From positions 1-64,000 of the forward strand of contig NZ_JACJSD010000033.1 of the NCBI RefSeq assembly GCF_014697615.1: a stretch of DNA of 64,000 nt. Direction: 5' to 3'. Numbering within the stretch: position 1 is the stretch's first letter; every line of letters starts with the position of its first letter. The position numbers and the translations under genes are program-made. Source of the stretch: Nostoc sp. FACHB-280 (lineage in GTDB: Bacteria > Cyanobacteriota > Cyanobacteriia > Cyanobacteriales > Nostocaceae). The notes below the pieces were generated by a model. That model saw nothing but the letters and a program-made list of their open reading frames with translations, had not been told where the DNA came from and made no database searches. Shown one piece after another: positions 6,852 through 16,821 of the stretch.

Positions 6852-6924
6852 GCCCCCATCGTCTAGAGGCCTAGGACACCTCCCTTTCACGGAGGCGACG
6901 GGGATTCGAATTCCCCTGGGGGTA
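6852..6924 (+). tRNA. trnE-UUC: tRNA-Glu(TTC), copy 1
   Basis: A complete 73-base cloverleaf with acceptor GCCCCCA/TGGGGGT, anticodon loop CTTTCAC and T arm GGGGATTCGAATTCCCC. No CCA is encoded. In cyanobacteria tRNA-Glu feeds both translation and C5-pathway tetrapyrrole synthesis through glutamyl-tRNA reductase. It is identical to copy 2, 49 bases downstream. Confidence 0.97.
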
Positions 6925-6973
6925 CTTTACCAGCAAGGCAGCATCAAACTAAAGTTACAGTCGAAAGTCTTAT

Positions 6974-7046
6974 GCCCCCATCGTCTAGAGGCCTAGGACA
7001 CCTCCCTTTCACGGAGGCGACGGGGATTCGAATTCCCCTGGGGGTA
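6974..7046 (+). tRNA. trnE-UUC: tRNA-Glu(TTC), copy 2
   Basis: Base-for-base repeat of copy 1 over all 73 bases. The spacer between the two copies is not duplicated. Both are probably transcribed from the promoter candidate upstream of copy 1. Confidence 0.97.
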
Positions 7047-7126
7047 TTTTAAACAAATTCATTATTTATTAAAAGGTCAAGTTTGCCTGTTTAAGACGAG
7101 TTGCATCAGGAAAACTTGACACGTAG

Positions 7127-11251: not shown

Positions 11252-11770
11252 GTGACGATCGCAATGCAAGTGTTAGAGCAATCCGTAGTGGTATTTTCGC
11301 AAAATTACTTGCCTCTGTGTCGCGTAAATATCAAGCGAGCGATTGTGCTGTTAGTGACAAACAAAGCAGAACCACTGGATTTTGCTACTGAAGGCGGATG
11401 GCGAGTTCATTCACCCAGTCTAGTAATTGACGTACCAAAACACATTCGTTTGAAAATTGGCTCTAATGAACGGACATGGAAAGTACCACCAGTAAATCGG
11501 CGAGAAGTTTTGCGGCGAGACCATCACACTTGTCAATATTGCGGTAGCAGCAAACGTCTGACCTTAGATCATGTCATCCCCCGATCCAAAGGTGGCTTAC
11601 ATACCTGGGATAACGTAGTCACAGCTTGTGAAAGATGTAACTCCCATAAAGGCGATCGCACCTTGTCTGAGACTGGAATGCGGCTACGGAAAACACCAAA
11701 AGCACCCATTCACCCCGCGATCGCTTTTGCAGAACAATTTTGGACAAATGTGCAAGCAAACCTGGAATAG
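11252..11770 (+). CDS. HNH endonuclease
   Basis: 172 residues. The HNH core is clear at about 82-135: RREVLRRDHHTCQYCG, then LTLDHVIPRSKGG, then DNVVTACERCNSHKGDR. The first His/Asp pair and both CxxC knuckles are present, as in the McrA-like HNH family very common in cyanobacteria. The start is GTG at 11252 with GGAG at 11241-11244. It is followed 16 bases later by a 130-residue protein of unknown function on the same strand, probably co-transcribed. A role in mobile DNA, defence or DNA repair cannot be separated from the sequence. Confidence 0.9.
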   Translation: MTIAMQVLEQSVVVFSQNYLPLCRVNIKRAIVLLVTNKAEPLDFATEGGWRVHSPSLVIDVPKHIRLKIGSNERTWKVPPVNRREVLRRDHHTCQYCGSSKRLTLDHVIPRSKGGLHTWDNVVTACERCNSHKGDRTLSETGMRLRKTPKAPIHPAIAFAEQFWTNVQANLE

Positions 11771-13166: not shown

Positions 13167-13196
13167 TTGACATTCTTTGTAGTATTTATGTAGTAT
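13167..13196 (+). promoter_or_regulatory. Candidate promoter upstream of the tRNA array region
   Basis: Perfect TTGACA (13167-13172), an 18-base spacer and TAGTAT (13191-13196). The -10 lies in a tandem 11-base repeat (TAGTATTTATG). It reads toward a 64-codon ORF and the tRNA array about 360 bases on. Whether it drives the array is untested. Confidence 0.45.
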
Positions 13197-13543: not shown

Positions 13544-13554
13544 ATACCACACAT

Positions 13555-13628
13555 GGGGGTATAGCTCAAATGGTGAGAGCGATCGCCTGTCGAGCGATAG
13601 GTTGCGAGTTCAAGTCTCGTTACTCCCG
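13555..13628 (+). tRNA. trnD-GUC: tRNA-Asp(GTC), first gene of the array
   Basis: Full cloverleaf: acceptor GGGGGTA/TACTCCC, anticodon loop CTGTCGA, T loop TTCAAGT, discriminator G. The anticodon stem overlaps a HIP1 octamer (GCGATCGC). CCA is not encoded. Confidence 0.92.
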
Positions 13629-13631
13629 TGT

Positions 13632-13705
13632 AGCCTTGTGGACGACTAGATAAGTCGCTGCGCCTCTCAAGCACAGAGAAGCGGGTGCAACTCCCGTCAA
13701 GGCTC
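13632..13705 (+). tRNA. trnE-CUC: tRNA-Glu(CTC)-like, irregular anticodon stem
   Basis: Acceptor AGCCTTG/CAAGGCT and T arm GCGGG/CCCGT are good. The loop CTCTCAA gives anticodon CTC when the stem is TGCGC/GCACA with one C-A mismatch; an outer pair extends it by one. The D arm (TGGACGA...GTC) matches the tRNA-Glu(TTC) of the array, supporting Glu. The last base is counted as discriminator C, unusual for Glu. Confidence 0.7.
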
Positions 13706-13711
13706 CCAAAC

Positions 13712-13784
13712 GGCTGAGTAGCCAAGTGGTTGAAGGCATTGGTCTGCAAAACCGACATCGTGAGTTCAAATCTCACCTCAGCCT
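13712..13784 (+). tRNA. trnC-GCA: tRNA-Cys(GCA)
   Basis: Acceptor GGCTGAG/CTCAGCC, anticodon loop CTGCAAA, T arm GTGAG-TTCAAAT-CTCAC, discriminator T as expected for Cys. It is the last tRNA before the HNH gene. Confidence 0.93.
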
Positions 13785-13799
13785 TTGGTACGTTGCAGT

Positions 13800-13840
13800 G
13801 TAGCTTAAGAAAATATTATATTAATATTTTCTTAAGCTAC
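13800..13840. repeat. Perfect 19-bp inverted repeat before the array HNH gene
   Basis: GTAGCTTAAGAAAATATTA (13800-13818) and its exact reverse complement (13822-13840) are separated by TAT. The right arm ends five bases before the ATG of the HNH gene. It could be a terminator-like hairpin, an operator, or the recognition/insertion site of the HNH element. Confidence 0.9.
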
Positions 13841-13845
13841 AAAAA

Positions 13846-14340
13846 ATGCCTGTTTGTCAAAACTGCAATCAAAAATTCCCAACCTGGATAAAAATTGATG
13901 GTAAATCTAGAAATCTTTCAACTCGAAAATACTGTCTAGAATGTACGCCATTTAAATCTTTTAACAGACTCAATCTCTCACAAGTACGGGAAGGTTGTTC
14001 AGTTTGTCAAAAACAACTGACTGGTTCACAGAGGAAATATTGTTCAATACAGTGTAAACATATAGCTCTCAATTACCAAAAACAGAAAGCTAAAGGCTTG
14101 GAAAGGAAAAAATTGCTAGTTACACAAAAAGGAGGATGTTGTTCTATATGTGGATACAACAAGAACTTAGCGGCAATGCACTTTCATCACCTTGATCCAG
14201 GGTTGAAAGAATTCAAGTTAAGTCTTAGAGAATTGGGGAATCATAGTGAGGCAAAGATAAACGCAGAACTTAAAAAATGTATTTTAGTTTGTAGCAATTG
14301 TCATGCAGAGATTCATCATCCTCAACTTACTTTGAATTAG
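13846..14340 (+). CDS. HNH endonuclease inside the tRNA array
   Basis: 164 residues with two zinc-binding parts. The N-terminal half has CQNC/CLEC and CSVCQ/CSIQC Cys pairs, resembling a double zinc ribbon. The C-terminal half has CSICGYNKNL, then MHFHHLDPGLKEF, then CILVCSNCHAEIHH, the HNH signature of small endonucleases often found in introns and phages. The ATG lies five bases after a perfect palindrome and there is no obvious Shine-Dalgarno. It sits between tRNA-Cys and tRNA-Trp. A homing or array-maintenance role is inferred from place alone; HNH genes within cyanobacterial tRNA arrays fit that idea. Confidence 0.88.
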   Translation: MPVCQNCNQKFPTWIKIDGKSRNLSTRKYCLECTPFKSFNRLNLSQVREGCSVCQKQLTGSQRKYCSIQCKHIALNYQKQKAKGLERKKLLVTQKGGCCSICGYNKNLAAMHFHHLDPGLKEFKLSLRELGNHSEAKINAELKKCILVCSNCHAEIHHPQLTLN

Positions 14341-14431
14341 TTGCTAAAACTTTGGCAGTTAGAGCAATGCCTTACCATAATTTATGTTAGTAATTTTGTG
14401 TAAAAGGAAGTTATAAGTCTTTACTGCTAAT

Positions 14432-14503
14432 GCAGGGATGGTGTAACGGCAACACCTCGTGACTCCAAATCCGATGTTCTAGGTTCAAATCCTAGTCCCT
14501 GCG
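14432..14503 (+). tRNA. trnW-CCA: tRNA-Trp(CCA)
   Basis: Acceptor GCAGGGA/TCCCTGC, loop CTCCAAA giving CCA, T arm CTAGG-TTCAAAT-CCTAG, discriminator G as in Trp. The anticodon stem pairs imperfectly (TCG/CGA with a mismatched inner part), so it is diverged. Confidence 0.8.
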
Positions 14504-14513
14504 TTCTACTTTT

Positions 14514-14586
14514 GCCCCCGTGGACGAACGGTTAAGTCACTGCTCTTTCAAAGCGGAGATTGCGGGTTCAAATCCCGTCGGGGGAA
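14514..14586 (+). tRNA. trnE-UUC: tRNA-Glu(TTC), array copy
   Basis: Loop CTTTCAA, stem CTGCT/AGCGG, T arm GCGGG-TTCAAAT-CCCGT. The first acceptor pair is G-A mismatched. It is clearly different in sequence from the two identical tRNA-Glu genes at 6.9-7.0 kb. Confidence 0.85.
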
Positions 14587-14590
14587 TTAT

Positions 14591-14673
14591 GGGTCGATGG
14601 CCGAGTCTGGTTAAAGGCGACAGTCTGTAAAACTGTTCTATTTTGTTCGCAGGTTCAAATCCTGCTCGACCCA
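14591..14673 (+). tRNA. trnY-GUA: tRNA-Tyr(GTA)
   Basis: Acceptor GGGTCGA/TCGACCC, anticodon ACAGT-CTGTAAA-ACTGT, long variable arm as normal for bacterial Tyr, T arm GCAGG-TTCAAAT-CCTGC, discriminator A. Confidence 0.93.
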
Positions 14674-14677
14674 CTGT

Positions 14678-14767
14678 GGAGAGGTGGCTGAGTGGCTAAA
14701 AGCATCCTCCTGCTAAGAGGAAACGGGTAGTTAATACCCGTCGAGGGTTCAAATCCCTCTCTCTCCG
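14678..14767 (+). tRNA. trnS-GCU: tRNA-Ser(GCT)
   Basis: 90 bases. Acceptor GGAGAGG/TCTCTCC, anticodon TCCTC-CTGCTAA-GAGGA, long variable arm CGGGT..ACCCG, T arm GAGGG-TTCAAAT-CCCTC, discriminator G. A full class II tRNA, in contrast to the leucine tRNAs of the array. Confidence 0.94.
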
Positions 14768-14789
14768 CCTGAAAAGTGCTGAGTGCTGA

Positions 14790-14848
14790 GAAAAACACTA
14801 GCCCTAGCCCCTAGTCTCTAATCTCTAGCCTCTAGTCCCTAACCCCTA
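14790..14848. repeat. Degenerate heptamer repeat (CTAGTCC/CTAGCCC-like)
   Basis: Eight or so degenerate copies of CTAGTCT/CTAGCCC/CTAGTCC in a row between tRNA-Ser and tRNA-Arg. They are short tandem heptamers of the kind common in Nostocales. Confidence 0.6.
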
Positions 14849-14850
14849 TT

Positions 14851-14925
14851 GAGAGTGTGGTGTAACTGGATAACATCTCAGTCTACGAAACTGAAGACGT
14901 GGGGGTTCAAATCCCTCCGCTCTCG
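14851..14925 (+). tRNA. trnR-ACG: tRNA-Arg(ACG)
   Basis: Acceptor GAGAGTG/CGCTCTC, anticodon TCAGT-CTACGAA-ACTGA, T arm GGGGG-TTCAAAT-CCCTC, discriminator G. A34 would be deaminated to inosine to read CGU, CGC and CGA. Confidence 0.92.
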
Positions 14926-14932
14926 TTACATA

Positions 14933-15001
14933 GGAGAGGTGGTGGAGTGGCTGATTCAAGTTGAATTAAACCAGTCCACGGGGTAATTACCCATCTCTCC
15001 T
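14933..15001 (+). pseudogene. Degenerate tRNA-Ser-like remnant without a T arm
   Basis: It starts like tRNA-Ser(GCT) (GGAGAGGTGGTGGAGTGGCT) and ends with the matching acceptor TCTCTCC. A GGGTAATTACCC hairpin like the Ser variable arm is present, but there is no TTCAAAT T arm and no readable anticodon arm. It is probably a decayed duplicate of the adjacent tRNA-Ser. Confidence 0.6.
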
Positions 15002-15007
15002 TCTTAT

Positions 15008-15081
15008 CCCCTGGTAGCTCAGTTGGTAGTAGCGCCTGTCTGAAGAACAGGAGGTCGTCGGTTCGATTCCGACCTGGGGGG
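15008..15081 (+). tRNA. trnF-GAA: tRNA-Phe(GAA)
   Basis: Anticodon CCTGT-CTGAAGA-ACAGG, T arm GTCGG-TTCGATT-CCGAC. The acceptor CCCCTGG/CTGGGGG uses G-T pairs at two positions, and the discriminator is G rather than the usual A. Confidence 0.85.
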
Positions 15082-15087
15082 CTGCGT

Positions 15088-15160
15088 TGCCTCGTAGCTC
15101 AGTGGTAGTAGCGATCGCCTGTTAAGCGAAAGGTCGCAGGTTCGATACCTGCCGAGGCAG
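15088..15160 (+). tRNA. trnN-GUU: tRNA-Asn(GTT), CCA encoded
   Basis: Acceptor TGCCTCG/CGAGGCA, loop CTGTTAA, T arm GCAGG-TTCGATA-CCTGC, discriminator G followed by genomic CCA. A HIP1 octamer overlaps the anticodon stem. Confidence 0.92.
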
Positions 15161-15168
15161 CCATTCAT

Positions 15169-15241
15169 TGCCGGGTGGACGAATTGGAAAGTCGCATCGC
15201 TCTGAACGATGAGGTTGCAGGTTCAAACCCTGCCCTGGCAA
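15169..15241 (+). tRNA. trnQ-CUG: tRNA-Gln(CTG)
   Basis: Acceptor TGCCGGG/CCTGGCA, anticodon CATCG-CTCTGAA-CGATG, T arm GCAGG-TTCAAAC-CCTGC, discriminator A. No CCA encoded. Confidence 0.9.
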
Positions 15242-15244
15242 TAA

Positions 15245-15317
15245 AGCCCTGTGGTGTAATTGGCAACATCCCGCCCTTTGAAGGCGAAGATTCCAGGTTC
15301 GACCCCTGGCAGGGCTG
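15245..15317 (+). tRNA. trnQ-UUG: tRNA-Gln(TTG), CCA encoded
   Basis: Acceptor AGCCCTG/CAGGGCT, loop CTTTGAA, T arm CCAGG-TTCGACC-CCTGG, discriminator G then genomic CCA. Confidence 0.91.
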
Positions 15318-15326
15318 CCAAATTTT

Positions 15327-15400
15327 GCTCTTGTAGCCCAATTGGAAGAGGCTGCCGTCTCAAAAACGGTATGTTGTGGGTTCAAATCCCACCAAGAGTA
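15327..15400 (+). tRNA. trnL-CAA: tRNA-Leu(CAA) with short variable arm, CCA encoded
   Basis: Acceptor GCTCTTG/CAAGAGT, anticodon GCCGT-CTCAAAA-ACGGT, T arm GTGGG-TTCAAAT-CCCAC. The variable region is only five bases (ATGTT), whereas bacterial tRNA-Leu normally has a long class II arm. Discriminator A73, the main leucine identity base, is present and CCA follows. Confidence 0.88.
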
Positions 15401-15409
15401 CCAAAACTG

Positions 15410-15485
15410 GCTCCTGTAGCCCAACTGGAAGAGGCGGCAGACTTAAAATCTGTTAATTGTGTGGGTTCAACTCCCACCAGGAGTA
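15410..15485 (+). tRNA. trnL-UAA: tRNA-Leu(TAA) with short variable arm, CCA encoded
   Basis: Acceptor GCTCCTG/CAGGAGT, anticodon GCAGA-CTTAAAA-TCTGT, T arm GTGGG-TTCAACT-CCCAC, seven-base variable region, discriminator A then CCA. The D arm is nearly the same as in the CAA gene. It has no group I intron, unlike the usual cyanobacterial trnL-UAA. Confidence 0.88.
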
Positions 15486-15489
15486 CCAA

Positions 15490-15563
15490 CGGGATGTGGC
15501 GCAACTTGGTAGCGCGGCAGCTTTGGGAGCTGAAGGTTGCAGGTTCAAATCCTGCCATCCCGA
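15490..15563 (+). tRNA. trnP-UGG: tRNA-Pro(TGG)
   Basis: Acceptor CGGGATG/CATCCCG, loop TTTGGGA, T arm GCAGG-TTCAAAT-CCTGC, discriminator A. No CCA encoded. Confidence 0.93.
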
Positions 15564-15566
15564 TAT

Positions 15567-15665
15567 GCCCCTGTGACGGAACGGCATACGTGCTGGAATC
15601 AGAGTCCAGATTTTACAGCTACCCTTCGGGAAGCCGCTTCGCGTCTACAAATCCTGTCAGGGGTA
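15567..15665 (+). tRNA. trnL-CAG: tRNA-Leu(CAG), short variable arm, interrupted in the T arm
   Basis: Acceptor GCCCCTG/CAGGGGT, anticodon CTGGA-ATCAGAG-TCCAG, five-base variable region and discriminator A. The T arm is broken: ACAG and CAAATCCTGT are separated by 29 foreign bases where three (GTT) are expected. Without them the gene would be 73 bases. It is probably non-functional unless the insert is tolerated as a T-loop extension. Confidence 0.8.
15619..15647. mobile_element. Small dispersed repeat inserted in tRNA-Leu(CAG)
   Basis: 29 bases containing CCCTTCGGG and GAAGCCGCTTC, both able to form tiny hairpins, replace the T-loop start of the tRNA. The sequence resembles the very small dispersed repeats (SDR type) known from Nostoc genomes. 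A fragment of the same repeat, TAGACGCAAAGCGG, occurs in the opposite orientation at 48349-48362. Confidence 0.7.
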
Positions 15666-15669
15666 CTAA

Positions 15670-15743
15670 GCTCCCGTGGCGGAACGGAAGACGCACTAGA
15701 CCGAGGATCTAGTTTTTTGCAGGTTCGACTCCTGTCGGGAGTA
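15670..15743 (+). tRNA. trnL-GAG: tRNA-Leu(GAG) with short variable arm, CCA encoded
   Basis: Acceptor GCTCCCG/CGGGAGT, anticodon CTAGA-CCGAGGA-TCTAG (C33 in place of the usual T33), T arm GCAGG-TTCGACT-CCTGT, six-base variable region, discriminator A then CCA. The D arm TGGCGGAACGGAAGACGC is very close to canonical bacterial tRNA-Leu, which supports a leucine origin. Confidence 0.85.
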
Positions 15744-15758
15744 CCAAAATCAAAGTAT

Positions 15759-15832
15759 GCCCTTGTAGCCCAACCGGAAGAGGCGCTTCGCTTAGAACGA
15801 GGAGGTTACTGGTTCAAATCCAGTCAGGGGCA
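15759..15832 (+). tRNA. trnL-UAG: tRNA-Leu(TAG) with short variable arm
   Basis: Acceptor GCCCTTG/CAGGGGC, anticodon CTTCG-CTTAGAA-CGAGG, T arm ACTGG-TTCAAAT-CCAGT, five-base variable region, discriminator A. It belongs with the CAA/TAA subgroup by its D arm (TAGCCCAA..GGAAGAGGC). No CCA encoded. Confidence 0.87.
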
Positions 15833-15841
15833 TTGGTGAAA

Positions 15842-15915
15842 TGCGGGGATGGAGCAAGAGTGGCTCAGAGGTCTCATAAGCCTCATATCAGCAGGTGCAA
15901 CTCCTGCCCCCGTCA
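15842..15915 (+). tRNA. trnM-CAU: tRNA-Met(CAT), initiator-like, CCA encoded
   Basis: Anticodon GAGGT-CTCATAA-GCCTC, T arm GCAGG-TGCAACT-CCTGC, acceptor TGCGGGG/CCCCGTC with a 1-72 mismatch (T-C) like the unpaired end of initiator tRNAs. It lacks the three G-C pairs expected in an initiator anticodon stem. Discriminator A then CCA. Confidence 0.8.
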
Positions 15916-15924
15916 CCAAATAAG

Positions 15925-15985
15925 GCAAAAGTAAAAATTTAAAAGGCAAAAGTCAAGAAAAAGACAATCTTTTTACTTTTTCACA
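15925..15985. repeat. Degenerate AGTAAAA/GGCAAAA repeat in the array spacer
   Basis: AT-rich short repeats (AGTAAAA, AGGCAAAA) fill the spacer between tRNA-Met and tRNA-Thr; a related stretch recurs at 16314-16386. Confidence 0.5.
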
Positions 15986-15988
15986 AGT

Positions 15989-16061
15989 GCTGGTGTAGCT
16001 CAATTGGCAGAGCAACTGACTTGTAATCAGTAGGTTGCAGGTTCAACTCCTGTCACCAGCT
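15989..16061 (+). tRNA. trnT-UGU: tRNA-Thr(TGT), CCA encoded
   Basis: Acceptor GCTGGTG/CACCAGC, anticodon ACTGA-CTTGTAA-TCAGT, T arm GCAGG-TTCAACT-CCTGT, discriminator T followed by genomic CCA. Confidence 0.95.
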
Positions 16062-16073
16062 CCAGAATGAAGT

Positions 16074-16144
16074 GCGATCGTGGTGTAACGGCAGCATCAG
16101 AGTCTTCCAAACTCACGGTACGAGTTCGAGTCTCGTCGATCGCT
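16074..16144 (+). tRNA. trnG-UCC: tRNA-Gly(TCC)
   Basis: Acceptor GCGATCG/CGATCGC (self-complementary with HIP1-like sequence), loop CTTCCAA, T arm ACGAG-TTCGAGT-CTCGT, discriminator T. Confidence 0.93.
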
Positions 16145-16149
16145 TGCGT

Positions 16150-16221
16150 AGTCCTGTAGTTCAAAGGTAGAGCAATTGCCTTACAAGCAATAAGTTGCGG
16201 GTTCAAATCCTGCCAGGACTA
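16150..16221 (+). tRNA. trnV-UAC: tRNA-Val(TAC), CCA encoded
   Basis: Acceptor AGTCCTG/CAGGACT, anticodon ATTGC-CTTACAA-GCAAT, T arm GCGGG-TTCAAAT-CCTGC, discriminator A then CCA. Confidence 0.95.
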
Positions 16222-16230
16222 CCAATTATT

Positions 16231-16304
16231 GGGAGTGTAGCTCAATTGAAGAGAGCATCGAGCTTCTAACTCGAAGGTTGTAGGTTTGAGTCCTACCACT
16301 CTCG
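16231..16304 (+). tRNA. trnR-UCU: tRNA-Arg(TCT)
   Basis: Acceptor GGGAGTG/CACTCTC, anticodon TCGAG-CTTCTAA-CTCGA, T arm GTAGG-TTTGAGT-CCTAC (T loop TTTGAGT is slightly off consensus), discriminator G. Confidence 0.93.
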
Positions 16305-16313
16305 CCTGAATAA

Positions 16314-16386
16314 GTCAAAAGTAAAAAGTTAAAAGGCAAAAGAAGAATTTAACTTTTACTTTTTACTTTACACTTTTTACTTTTTT
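16314..16386. repeat. Inverted AGTAAAA/TTTTACT repeat in the array spacer
   Basis: AGTCAAAAGTAAAAAG on the left is mirrored by TTTTACTTTTTACTTT on the right, forming an AT-rich long stem in the spacer between tRNA-Arg and tRNA-Ala. It could act as a processing or pausing element. Confidence 0.5.
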
Positions 16387-16389
16387 GAT

Positions 16390-16463
16390 GGGGTCATAGC
16401 TCAAATGGCTAGAGCGCCTGCCTTGCAAGCAGGAGGTTATGGGTTCAATTCCCATTGATTCCA
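16390..16463 (+). tRNA. trnA-UGC: tRNA-Ala(TGC)
   Basis: Acceptor GGGGTCA/TGATTCC with two G-T pairs, anticodon CCTGC-CTTGCAA-GCAGG, T arm ATGGG-TTCAATT-CCCAT, discriminator A. Confidence 0.93.
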
Positions 16464-16468
16464 TTGAT

Positions 16469-16543
16469 GGTGTCTGAAGCCAAAGCGGTCGAGGCGCTGG
16501 TTTGTGGAACCAGTCATAGCGGGTTCAAGCCCCGTCGGACACC
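16469..16543 (+). tRNA. trnH-GUG: tRNA-His(GTG)
   Basis: Anticodon CTGGT-TTGTGGA-ACCAG. The extra 5' G(-1) is encoded and pairs with discriminator C73, the histidine identity pair. T arm GCGGG-TTCAAGC-CCCGT. Confidence 0.95.
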
Positions 16544-16550
16544 CCTGAAT

Positions 16551-16633
16551 GGAAGATGCCGCTAAATGGTTGGCAACCGGTCTTGAAAACCGGGGTGGGG
16601 TAACACCCAGGAGTTCGATTCTTCCATCTTCCG
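16551..16633 (+). tRNA. trnS-UGA: tRNA-Ser(TGA)
   Basis: Acceptor GGAAGAT/ATCTTCC, anticodon CCGGT-CTTGAAA-ACCGG, long variable arm GGTG..CACC, discriminator G. A class II tRNA with a full arm. The T loop TTCGATT is normal. Confidence 0.92.
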
Positions 16634-16637
16634 CCTT

Positions 16638-16709
16638 CCACCTGAAGCCGAAAAGTGAGGCGCTGTGCTGATAACACAGTTATAGGAGGGGCAGTACCTC
16701 CCTGGTGGA
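16638..16709 (+). tRNA. trnI-GAU: tRNA-Ile(GAT) with abnormal T loop
   Basis: Anticodon CTGTG-CTGATAA-CACAG is perfect. The acceptor CCACCTG/CTGGTGG has one T-T mismatch, and the T arm GGAGG-GGCAGTA-CCTCC lacks the conserved TTC of the T loop. Function is uncertain. Confidence 0.8.
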
Positions 16710-16733
16710 TTTTACTTCCCACTCCTTATTCCT

Positions 16734-16805
16734 GGGTGGTTGGCATAGCGGCTGTGCAACGGGCTTTTAATCCGTCATAGAGAGGTTCGACTCCTCTACC
16801 ACCCA
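16734..16805 (+). tRNA. trnK-UUU: tRNA-Lys(TTT), last gene of the array
   Basis: Acceptor GGGTGGT/ACCACCC, loop CTTTTAA, T arm AGAGG-TTCGACT-CCTCT, discriminator A. The convergent TPR gene ends 17 bases further on, so the array ends here. Confidence 0.95.
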
Positions 16806-16821
16806 TTTTCAAAACTAACTT

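What the first reader, a model, noticed from the sequence alone, without database searches (positions are those of the whole stretch)
15327..15832. Five leucine tRNAs with short variable arms
Seen: tRNA-Leu CAA, TAA, CAG, GAG and TAG each have a 5-7-base variable region, not the long class II arm typical of bacterial tRNA-Leu, and all have discriminator A. Together they are the full five-isoacceptor leucine set. The array's Ser and Tyr tRNAs keep long arms, so the loss is specific to Leu. The GAG gene keeps a canonical Leu D arm. I know of no bacterial genome where all Leu isoacceptors are class I-like. This may be an undescribed form of tRNA-Leu and would raise the question of which LeuRS recognises it.
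Basis: partly seen in the sequence, partly recalled or inferred. Interest (0 to 1): 0.88.

Follow-up and report, generated by a model that had tools for sequence, protein, structure and literature searches.

The report
Leucine tRNAs lacking their long arm
A cyanobacterial tRNA array carries leucine tRNAs without their usual long side arm; searches show the same short-armed form in phages, in other mobile tRNA arrays and in the core tRNA set of some actinobacteria, although a recent review says bacterial leucine tRNAs always have the arm.

Summary
Four array genes (CAA, TAA, GAG, TAG) are intact Leu cloverleaves with 5-7-nt variable loops and A73. The CAG gene also has a 5-nt loop, but a 30-nt repeat fills its T loop, so it is probably dead. 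The array's Ser and Tyr tRNAs keep long arms. The chromosome has the normal long-armed set of five and one LeuRS.

The form is not unique. In 28 cyanobacterial sources examined (18 picked by a short-arm pattern) 72 of 77 Leu genes are short; Kovacikia minuta and genome G185 have all five short and intact. Phages of Bacillus, Acinetobacter, Myxococcus and Salmonella (Felix O1) carry it; 22 of 82 Leu genes in a viral sample are short. In Corynebacterium pelargi the only UAA and CAA tRNAs are short, beside one LeuRS.

Best reading: working leucine tRNAs charged by ordinary LeuRS, which reads A73 and the D/T core, not the arm. SerRS needs the arm, which fits loss in Leu only. Charging is inferred, not shown. 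A short loop on one mycobacterial cluster tRNA-Leu is already in print; I did not find the breadth, the complete short sets or the housekeeping use stated.

The parts
13178..13196 (+). two TGTAGTAT sites about 360-375 nt before the first array tRNA; same sequence as the TrcR operator that overlaps the -10 box of the Anabaena PCC 7120 trn array
   Evidence: 7 such sites in the window; mean 1.55 in shuffles; operator described in PMC10272220, section 9. Regulation here is inferred.
13554..16806 (+). tRNA array (25 tRNA genes called by ARAGORN at 13554-16806, plus interrupted and unrecognised ones)
14591..14674 (+). tRNA-Tyr GTA, 12-nt variable region (control: long arm kept)
14678..14769 (+). 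tRNA-Ser GCT, 21-nt variable region (control: long arm kept)
15327..15403 (+). tRNA-Leu CAA, variable region 5 nt (ATGTT), A73, CCA encoded, G1-U72
15410..15488 (+). tRNA-Leu TAA, variable region 7 nt (TAATTGT), A73, CCA encoded, G1-U72
15567..15665 (+). tRNA-Leu CAG, variable region 5 nt (ATTTT), A73, G1-U72; T loop interrupted, probably not functional
   Evidence: not called
15619..15648 (+). 30-nt palindromic repeat inside the T loop of the CAG gene
15670..15746 (+). tRNA-Leu GAG, variable region 6 nt (TTTTTT), A73, CCA encoded, G1-U72, D stem GCG/CGC as in chromosomal Leu genes
15758..15833 (+). tRNA-Leu TAG, variable region 5 nt (AGGTT), A73, no encoded CCA, G1-C72

Best explanation
The array encodes leucine tRNAs of a short-armed type: the long class II arm is replaced by a 5-7-nt class I loop, while the features that bacterial LeuRS reads are kept (A73, and a D arm of 3 bp with loop NAA..GG.AGA, with U48). 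The host's only LeuRS would charge them with leucine and they would read all leucine codons beside the normal chromosomal set, mainly when the array is switched on. Leu can lose the arm because LeuRS does not use it; Ser cannot, because SerRS does; Tyr probably cannot either (recalled). The type is spread by phages and mobile tRNA arrays and has also become the housekeeping UAA/CAA tRNA in some actinobacteria. Shown: structure, identity features, distribution, one LeuRS gene. Inferred: charging with leucine, use in translation, stress induction in this strain, direction of spread.
For: Structure and A73. Leu-type D arm in 4 of 4 intact window Leu genes against 0 of 19 other class I tRNAs; in arrays and phages not chosen by D loop 20 of 27 short Leu, 4 of 6 long Leu, 0 of 208 other class I. 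D arm, A73 and U48 together in 0 of 1844 other class I tRNAs of all loci (a further 51 non-Leu calls with odd loops, set apart, had 1). E. coli LeuRS needs A73, A15-U48, G18G19 and A20a, not the arm, and truncated tRNA-Leu without the arm stays active; SerRS needs the arm (PMC9976931 and PMC7609411, passages). One gene above the LeuRS cut-off in this genome. Corynebacterium pelargi: 47 tRNA genes, single Leu UAA and CAA genes, both with 5-nt loops, CAG, GAG and TAG long, one LeuRS gene: UUA there can be read only by the short tRNA. Felix O1: 3 of 3 Leu short, Ser and Tyr long. Discrete class: in a viral sample 22 Leu with V=5, 60 with V=11-19, none between. Intact short CAG genes in seven related arrays keep all stems.
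Against: No charging or expression data for any of these genes. One of five is interrupted. TAG and CAG encode no CCA. Three arrays have a 12-nt TAA arm. 7 of 27 short Leu genes in the array/phage set fail the strict D-arm test. U72, seen in 26 of 27 short Leu genes of that set and 0 of 6 long ones, has no explanation here, and C. pelargi short genes have C72. LeuRS data come from E. coli, not from cyanobacteria.
Confidence: 0.78

Rival explanations
1. Decaying passenger genes: the array is a burden-free relic and the short loops are damage, so the tRNAs do little or nothing.
For: The CAG gene is interrupted; other array genes are too. The chromosome already has all five Leu tRNAs.
Against: Four genes have every stem intact. 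Loop lengths are tightly 5-7 and the same anticodons recur as short in many arrays, phages and chromosomes, while 33 of 33 Ser and 13 of 14 Tyr genes in the same sources are long; random damage would not spare them. In C. pelargi the type must work.
Confidence: 0.12
2. Arm loss is an escape: mobile elements lose the arm so that toxins or defence nucleases that grip class II tRNAs cannot disable them. This adds a reason to the main reading rather than replacing it.
For: A toxin that needs the long loop of tRNA-Ser is known (MenT3, PMC11541572, passages). Short Leu is common on phages and arrays. The Anabaena array is induced by translation stress (PMC10272220, section 9).
Against: No enzyme that attacks tRNA-Leu through its arm was looked for or found here. 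Short Leu is also an ordinary housekeeping tRNA in some actinobacteria. T4 and T5 keep the arm.
Confidence: 0.12
3. The tRNAs carry another amino acid, i.e. they recode leucine codons.
For: Class I loops and U72 set them apart from normal tRNA-Leu.
Against: Leu-type D arm, A73 and U48 are kept; recoding of five leucine codon groups beside a normal chromosomal set would be toxic; no second LeuRS-like gene above the cut-off.
Confidence: 0.03

Closest known systems
Bacterial class II tRNA-Leu (e.g. the host's own chromosomal genes)
   Same: anticodons, A73, U48, D arm of 3 bp with loop NAA..GG.AGA
   Different: variable region 5-7 nt instead of 12-17 nt; in CAA, TAA and TAG the D stem is GCC/GGC, in the host's genes GCG/CGC or GCG/CGC-like
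Cluster-encoded tRNA-Leu TAG of Mycobacterium mucogenicum and M. phocaicum (PMC6582537)
   Same: short variable loop, in a tRNA cluster, beside a normal long-looped isoacceptor elsewhere in the genome; an HNH gene in the cluster of some strains
   Different: one isoacceptor is noted there; here four intact short ones of one set. Sequences of that cluster were not compared
Animal mitochondrial tRNA-Leu
   Same: no long arm, A73 and A14 used, charged by a LeuRS (PMC9976931, passages)
   Different: organelle tRNA with a degenerate structure; the array genes have full stems and a regular core
trn array of Anabaena sp. PCC 7120 (delta plasmid; TrcR-repressed, stress-induced)
   Same: long array of extra tRNAs in a filamentous cyanobacterium; TGTAGTAT site upstream
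   Different: its Leu genes were not seen here, as the record was not among the hits fetched; whether its short arms are described is unknown to me
Felix O1 and related phage tRNA clusters
   Same: Leu UAG, CAA, UAA all short (5, 6, 7 nt), Ser and Tyr long; HNH genes between tRNAs
   Different: phage genome, three Leu isoacceptors, not five

Membership tests
tRNA-Leu by identity | leucine anticodon and A73 | tested here: met
   4 of 4 intact genes, and the interrupted CAG gene
tRNA-Leu by identity | Leu-type D arm (AA..GG.AGA, 3-bp stem) and U48 | tested here: met
   4 of 4 intact genes; 0 of 19 other class I tRNAs in the window. Which of these bases cyanobacterial LeuRS needs is taken from E. 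coli
tRNA-Leu by identity | charged with leucine | not testable with these tools
   needs biochemistry
class II tRNA (long-armed tRNA-Leu) | variable region of 10 or more nt | tested here: not met
   5, 7, 5, 6, 5 nt for CAA, TAA, CAG, GAG, TAG
class I tRNA | variable region of 4-5 nt | tested here: inconclusive
   CAA, CAG, TAG have 5; GAG 6 and TAA 7 are slightly longer; D arm is Leu-type, not that of other class I tRNAs
cyanobacterial long tRNA array (trn operon type) | 20 or more tightly packed tRNA genes beside a complete chromosomal set | tested here: met
   25 genes in 3.25 kb; all five Leu genes also elsewhere in the genome; other isotypes not tallied
cyanobacterial long tRNA array (trn operon type) | TrcR operator at the promoter | tested here: inconclusive
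   TGTAGTAT twice upstream; promoter not mapped and TrcR gene not searched for
cyanobacterial long tRNA array (trn operon type) | silent, induced by translation stress | not testable with these tools
   reported for Anabaena PCC 7120 only

The most novel reading that the evidence does not exclude
Short-armed tRNA-Leu is a natural, widespread second form of bacterial tRNA-Leu, contrary to the rule that all bacterial tRNA-Leu are class II: complete short sets on cyanobacterial arrays, common in phages, and the sole UUA/UUG readers in some actinobacteria. Arm loss happened more than once and only in Leu, because LeuRS alone of the three class II synthetases ignores the arm; on mobile elements it may also protect the tRNAs from host enzymes that grip long arms.
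Probability: 0.35. Interest if true: 0.75.

Novelty: new variant of a known kind. Interest (0 to 1): 0.57.

Why it matters
If these tRNAs are leucylated, a statement repeated in reviews (long arm in every tRNA-Leu outside animal mitochondria) is wrong for bacteria. They would be natural versions of the armless tRNA-Leu that were made in vitro, showing that LeuRS recognition through A73 and the tRNA core suffices in living cells. They also give a reason why, of the three class II isotypes, only Leu sheds the arm, and a practical warning: annotation that sorts tRNAs by arm length can misjudge leucine tRNAs in phages, arrays and actinobacteria.

Tried and rejected
Artefact of ARAGORN boundaries: rejected, since Rfam's tRNA model agrees on the four intact genes. 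Uniqueness to this genome: rejected. A special LeuRS: the family search shows one LeuRS over the cut-off; the other matches were below it and look like pieces of related synthetases. A tree to count arm losses: 184 of 462 distinct Leu genes (some groups capped at random), 67 columns, 17 of 181 inner branches with strong support. It needs 11 changes between short and long (26 without the D arm), but it is too weakly resolved for a count, so 'more than once' is a lean, not a result. All arrays being short: rejected; Paenibacillus and Priestia plasmid arrays have long Leu (0 of 2 and 0 of 2 short), three cyanobacterial arrays have a 12-nt TAA arm, T4 and T5 are long. Short UAA/CAA as a rule of all actinobacteria: rejected; in an even draw of 119 genomes the printed list (capped) shows 54 genomes, by my count by eye, and short Leu in 9 of them, the centre G293 included. 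The 20 genomes were chosen because they carry the short form; from the 97 matches I dropped 2 that are not tRNAs and 3 repeats before counting. Rates of the D-arm feature over all loci are biased, as many loci were picked by D-loop patterns; hence the separate count. The 72 of 77 count is biased too: 18 of 28 sources were found with a short-arm pattern; in the 9 plasmids found by array similarity it is 20 of 20, with no Leu gene called in one of them. I fetched 9 of the 15 cyanobacterial plasmids listed. Paper searches that found no statement of widespread short-armed bacterial tRNA-Leu; the library holds only open-licence papers, and I read listings, passages and one section, no whole paper.

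Full report
What is there. The window lies on a 78,948-base contig of a 7.64-Mb genome; the nearest tRNA relatives are Nostocales, so I take it for a filamentous cyanobacterium (inference). ARAGORN tRNA genes at 13554-16806. Leu CAA, TAA, GAG and TAG are complete cloverleaves with all stems paired, variable regions of 5, 7, 6 and 5 nt, and A73. Ser GCT (21 nt) and Tyr GTA (12 nt) beside them are long.

The CAG gene. At 15567-15665 acceptor, D and anticodon parts and a 5-nt loop (ATTTT) are in place, and A73 follows the acceptor stem, but a 30-nt palindromic repeat (15619-15648) stands in the T loop. ARAGORN and Rfam do not call the gene. Its intact relatives in seven other cyanobacterial sources, eight genes shown with L015 counted, also have 5- or 6-nt loops. 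So the short loop is the state of the family, and the interruption is a local accident.

Host background. The chromosome has its own Leu TAG, GAG, CAA and CAG genes with loops of 13, 12, 15 and 13 nt and a Leu UAA gene with a group I intron, whose loop I read as 17 nt by eye. The LeuRS family search gives one gene over the cut-off, 935 aa, 1210.7 bits. The array is therefore extra, and one LeuRS must serve both sets if both are charged.

Leu identity. All four intact genes keep the D arm of normal tRNA-Leu, a 3-bp stem with loop NAA..GG.AGA, plus U48 and A73; none of 19 other class I tRNAs of the window does. In plasmid and phage clusters that were not chosen by the D loop, the D arm is met in 20 of 27 short Leu, 4 of 6 long Leu and 0 of 208 other class I genes. 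Over all loci, D arm, U48 and A73 together occur in 0 of 1844 other class I genes, after leaving out genes with weak stems, repeats, unassigned calls and 51 non-Leu calls with odd loops, of which 1 had all three. A review gives A73, A15-U48, G18G19 and A20a as the needs of E. coli LeuRS, says the arm is not needed and that variants without it stay active; SerRS by contrast needs the arm (PMC9976931 and PMC7609411, passages). That TyrRS of bacteria uses the arm is recalled. This gives a simple reason why Leu alone has lost it.

Distribution: cyanobacterial arrays. In 28 sources (the window, 9 of the 15 cyanobacterial plasmids listed, and 18 genomes found with a short-arm pattern), 72 of 77 Leu genes are short; of the other five, three are real 12-nt TAA arms and two are short genes with a T-loop insert that the script misread. 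Ser is long in 33 of 33 and Tyr in 13 of 14. The plasmids alone give 20 of 20 short. Kovacikia minuta and genome G185 have all five isoacceptors short and uninterrupted. In one search the pattern hit 26 of 292 cyanobacterial genomes; seven of these hits have no tRNA at the place.

Distribution: phages. Bacillus phage P59, Acinetobacter phage Acibel004, Myxococcus phage Mx1 (2 of 2 Leu short each), Escherichia phage wV8 and Salmonella phage Felix O1 (3 of 3 short each; Ser and Tyr long). T4 and T5, taken as named comparisons, have long Leu. A pattern that admits both arm lengths gave a capped sample of 120 viral stretches with 125 places: 82 Leu genes, 22 with V=5 and 60 with V=11-19, none between; 14 other tRNAs and 29 places without a tRNA call. 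The D stem goes with the arm: of 110 tRNAs called at GTAGCCCAA..GG.AGAGGC in viral stretches 107 are Leu, all V=5-6 (3 unassigned); of 53 called at GTGGCGGAA..GG.AGACGC 49 are Leu, all V=12-17; 19 and 67 of 120 stretches gave no tRNA call.

Distribution: cellular genomes. The first pattern in named genomes gave 119 stretches (capped): 109 Leu genes, all V=5-7, 15 stretches without a tRNA call, most titles actinobacterial. In 20 actinobacteria chosen from these, UAA is short in 18 of 18 genes seen, CAA in 12 of 15, TAG in 4 of 14, CAG in 2 of 23, GAG in 1 of 22. In Corynebacterium pelargi I fetched every stretch with a tRNA match: 47 tRNA genes, one gene per Leu anticodon, UAA and CAA with 5-nt loops, the other three long, and one LeuRS gene. 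UUA can be read only by UAA, so there the short tRNA should be essential and leucylated (inference from the code). It is not a rule of the phylum: in an even draw short Leu shows in 9 of 54 genomes listed before the cap (counted by eye).

How it most likely works. The array Leu tRNAs would fold with a class I core, be recognised by LeuRS through A73 and the D/T corner, and decode all leucine codons when the array is expressed. TGTAGTAT stands twice 365-376 nt before the first tRNA, the sequence that TrcR protects at the -10 box of the Anabaena array, which is silent until translation is stressed (PMC10272220, section 9). HNH genes are annotated just before the array in five of nine plasmids and between the tRNAs of Felix O1, and an HNH gene lies at 11252-11770 here, which fits a phage-like origin of such arrays. 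None of the functional steps was tested.

Against the reading. One of five genes is interrupted. TAG and CAG lack an encoded CCA. U72 is found in 3 of 4 window genes and 26 of 27 short Leu genes of the array/phage set, 0 of 6 long ones and 42 of 208 others, while C. pelargi has C72; I cannot explain it. The tree is too weak to say how often the arm was lost.

Novelty. A review of 2023 states that tRNA-Leu has a long arm everywhere except in animal mitochondria (PMC9976931, passage). One paper notes a short loop on a mycobacterial cluster tRNA-Leu TAG (PMC6582537, passage), and another implies that only three of the M. tuberculosis tRNA-Leu have long loops (PMC11541572, passage). My ten searches of an open-licence library found no account of the breadth; the main paper on cyanobacterial long arrays is not held. 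I therefore call it a new variant of a known kind: surprising against the textbook, ordinary in how it probably works.

Noticed in passing
window 15619-15648; also L013:4613, L497:1184, L502, L506, L507, L509, L511, L530, L572-L575, L579: A palindromic repeat (..TACC CTTCGGGAAGC..CTAC..) sits at the same point of the T loop in many different array tRNA genes (Met, Asn, Leu CAG, TAA and GAG, Trp, Pro, Thr, Val among them). One search lists 13 such genes, all with 5 of 5 T-stem pairs and 10 with an acceptor partner found. The six other copies in this genome are not in tRNA genes, judged by eye. It looks like a small mobile repeat that favours tRNA T loops.
   Followed up: partly
array and phage short Leu genes, e.g. 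window 15327-15403: U72 (G1-U72 or A1-U72) in 26 of 27 short Leu genes of plasmid arrays and phages, 0 of 6 long ones, 42 of 208 other class I genes; absent in the short genes of C. pelargi. Unexplained.
   Followed up: no
L009 (G000:C37:72200-72650): Two neighbouring tRNA-like stretches with inserts in the anticodon arm; ARAGORN reads them only as intron-bearing tRNAs.
   Followed up: no
window 14932-15000, 16548-16635, 16640-16720: By eye: a truncated Ser-like tRNA remnant, a Ser TGA-like tRNA and an Ile GAT-like tRNA that ARAGORN and the Rfam model did not call.
   Followed up: no
G000:C70:149185-149374 (L565): A second group I intron match, in a tRNA-Met CAT gene (48.5 bits, just under the Rfam cut-off).
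   Followed up: no
window 6852-7047: Two nearly identical tRNA-Glu TTC genes in tandem outside the array.
   Followed up: no
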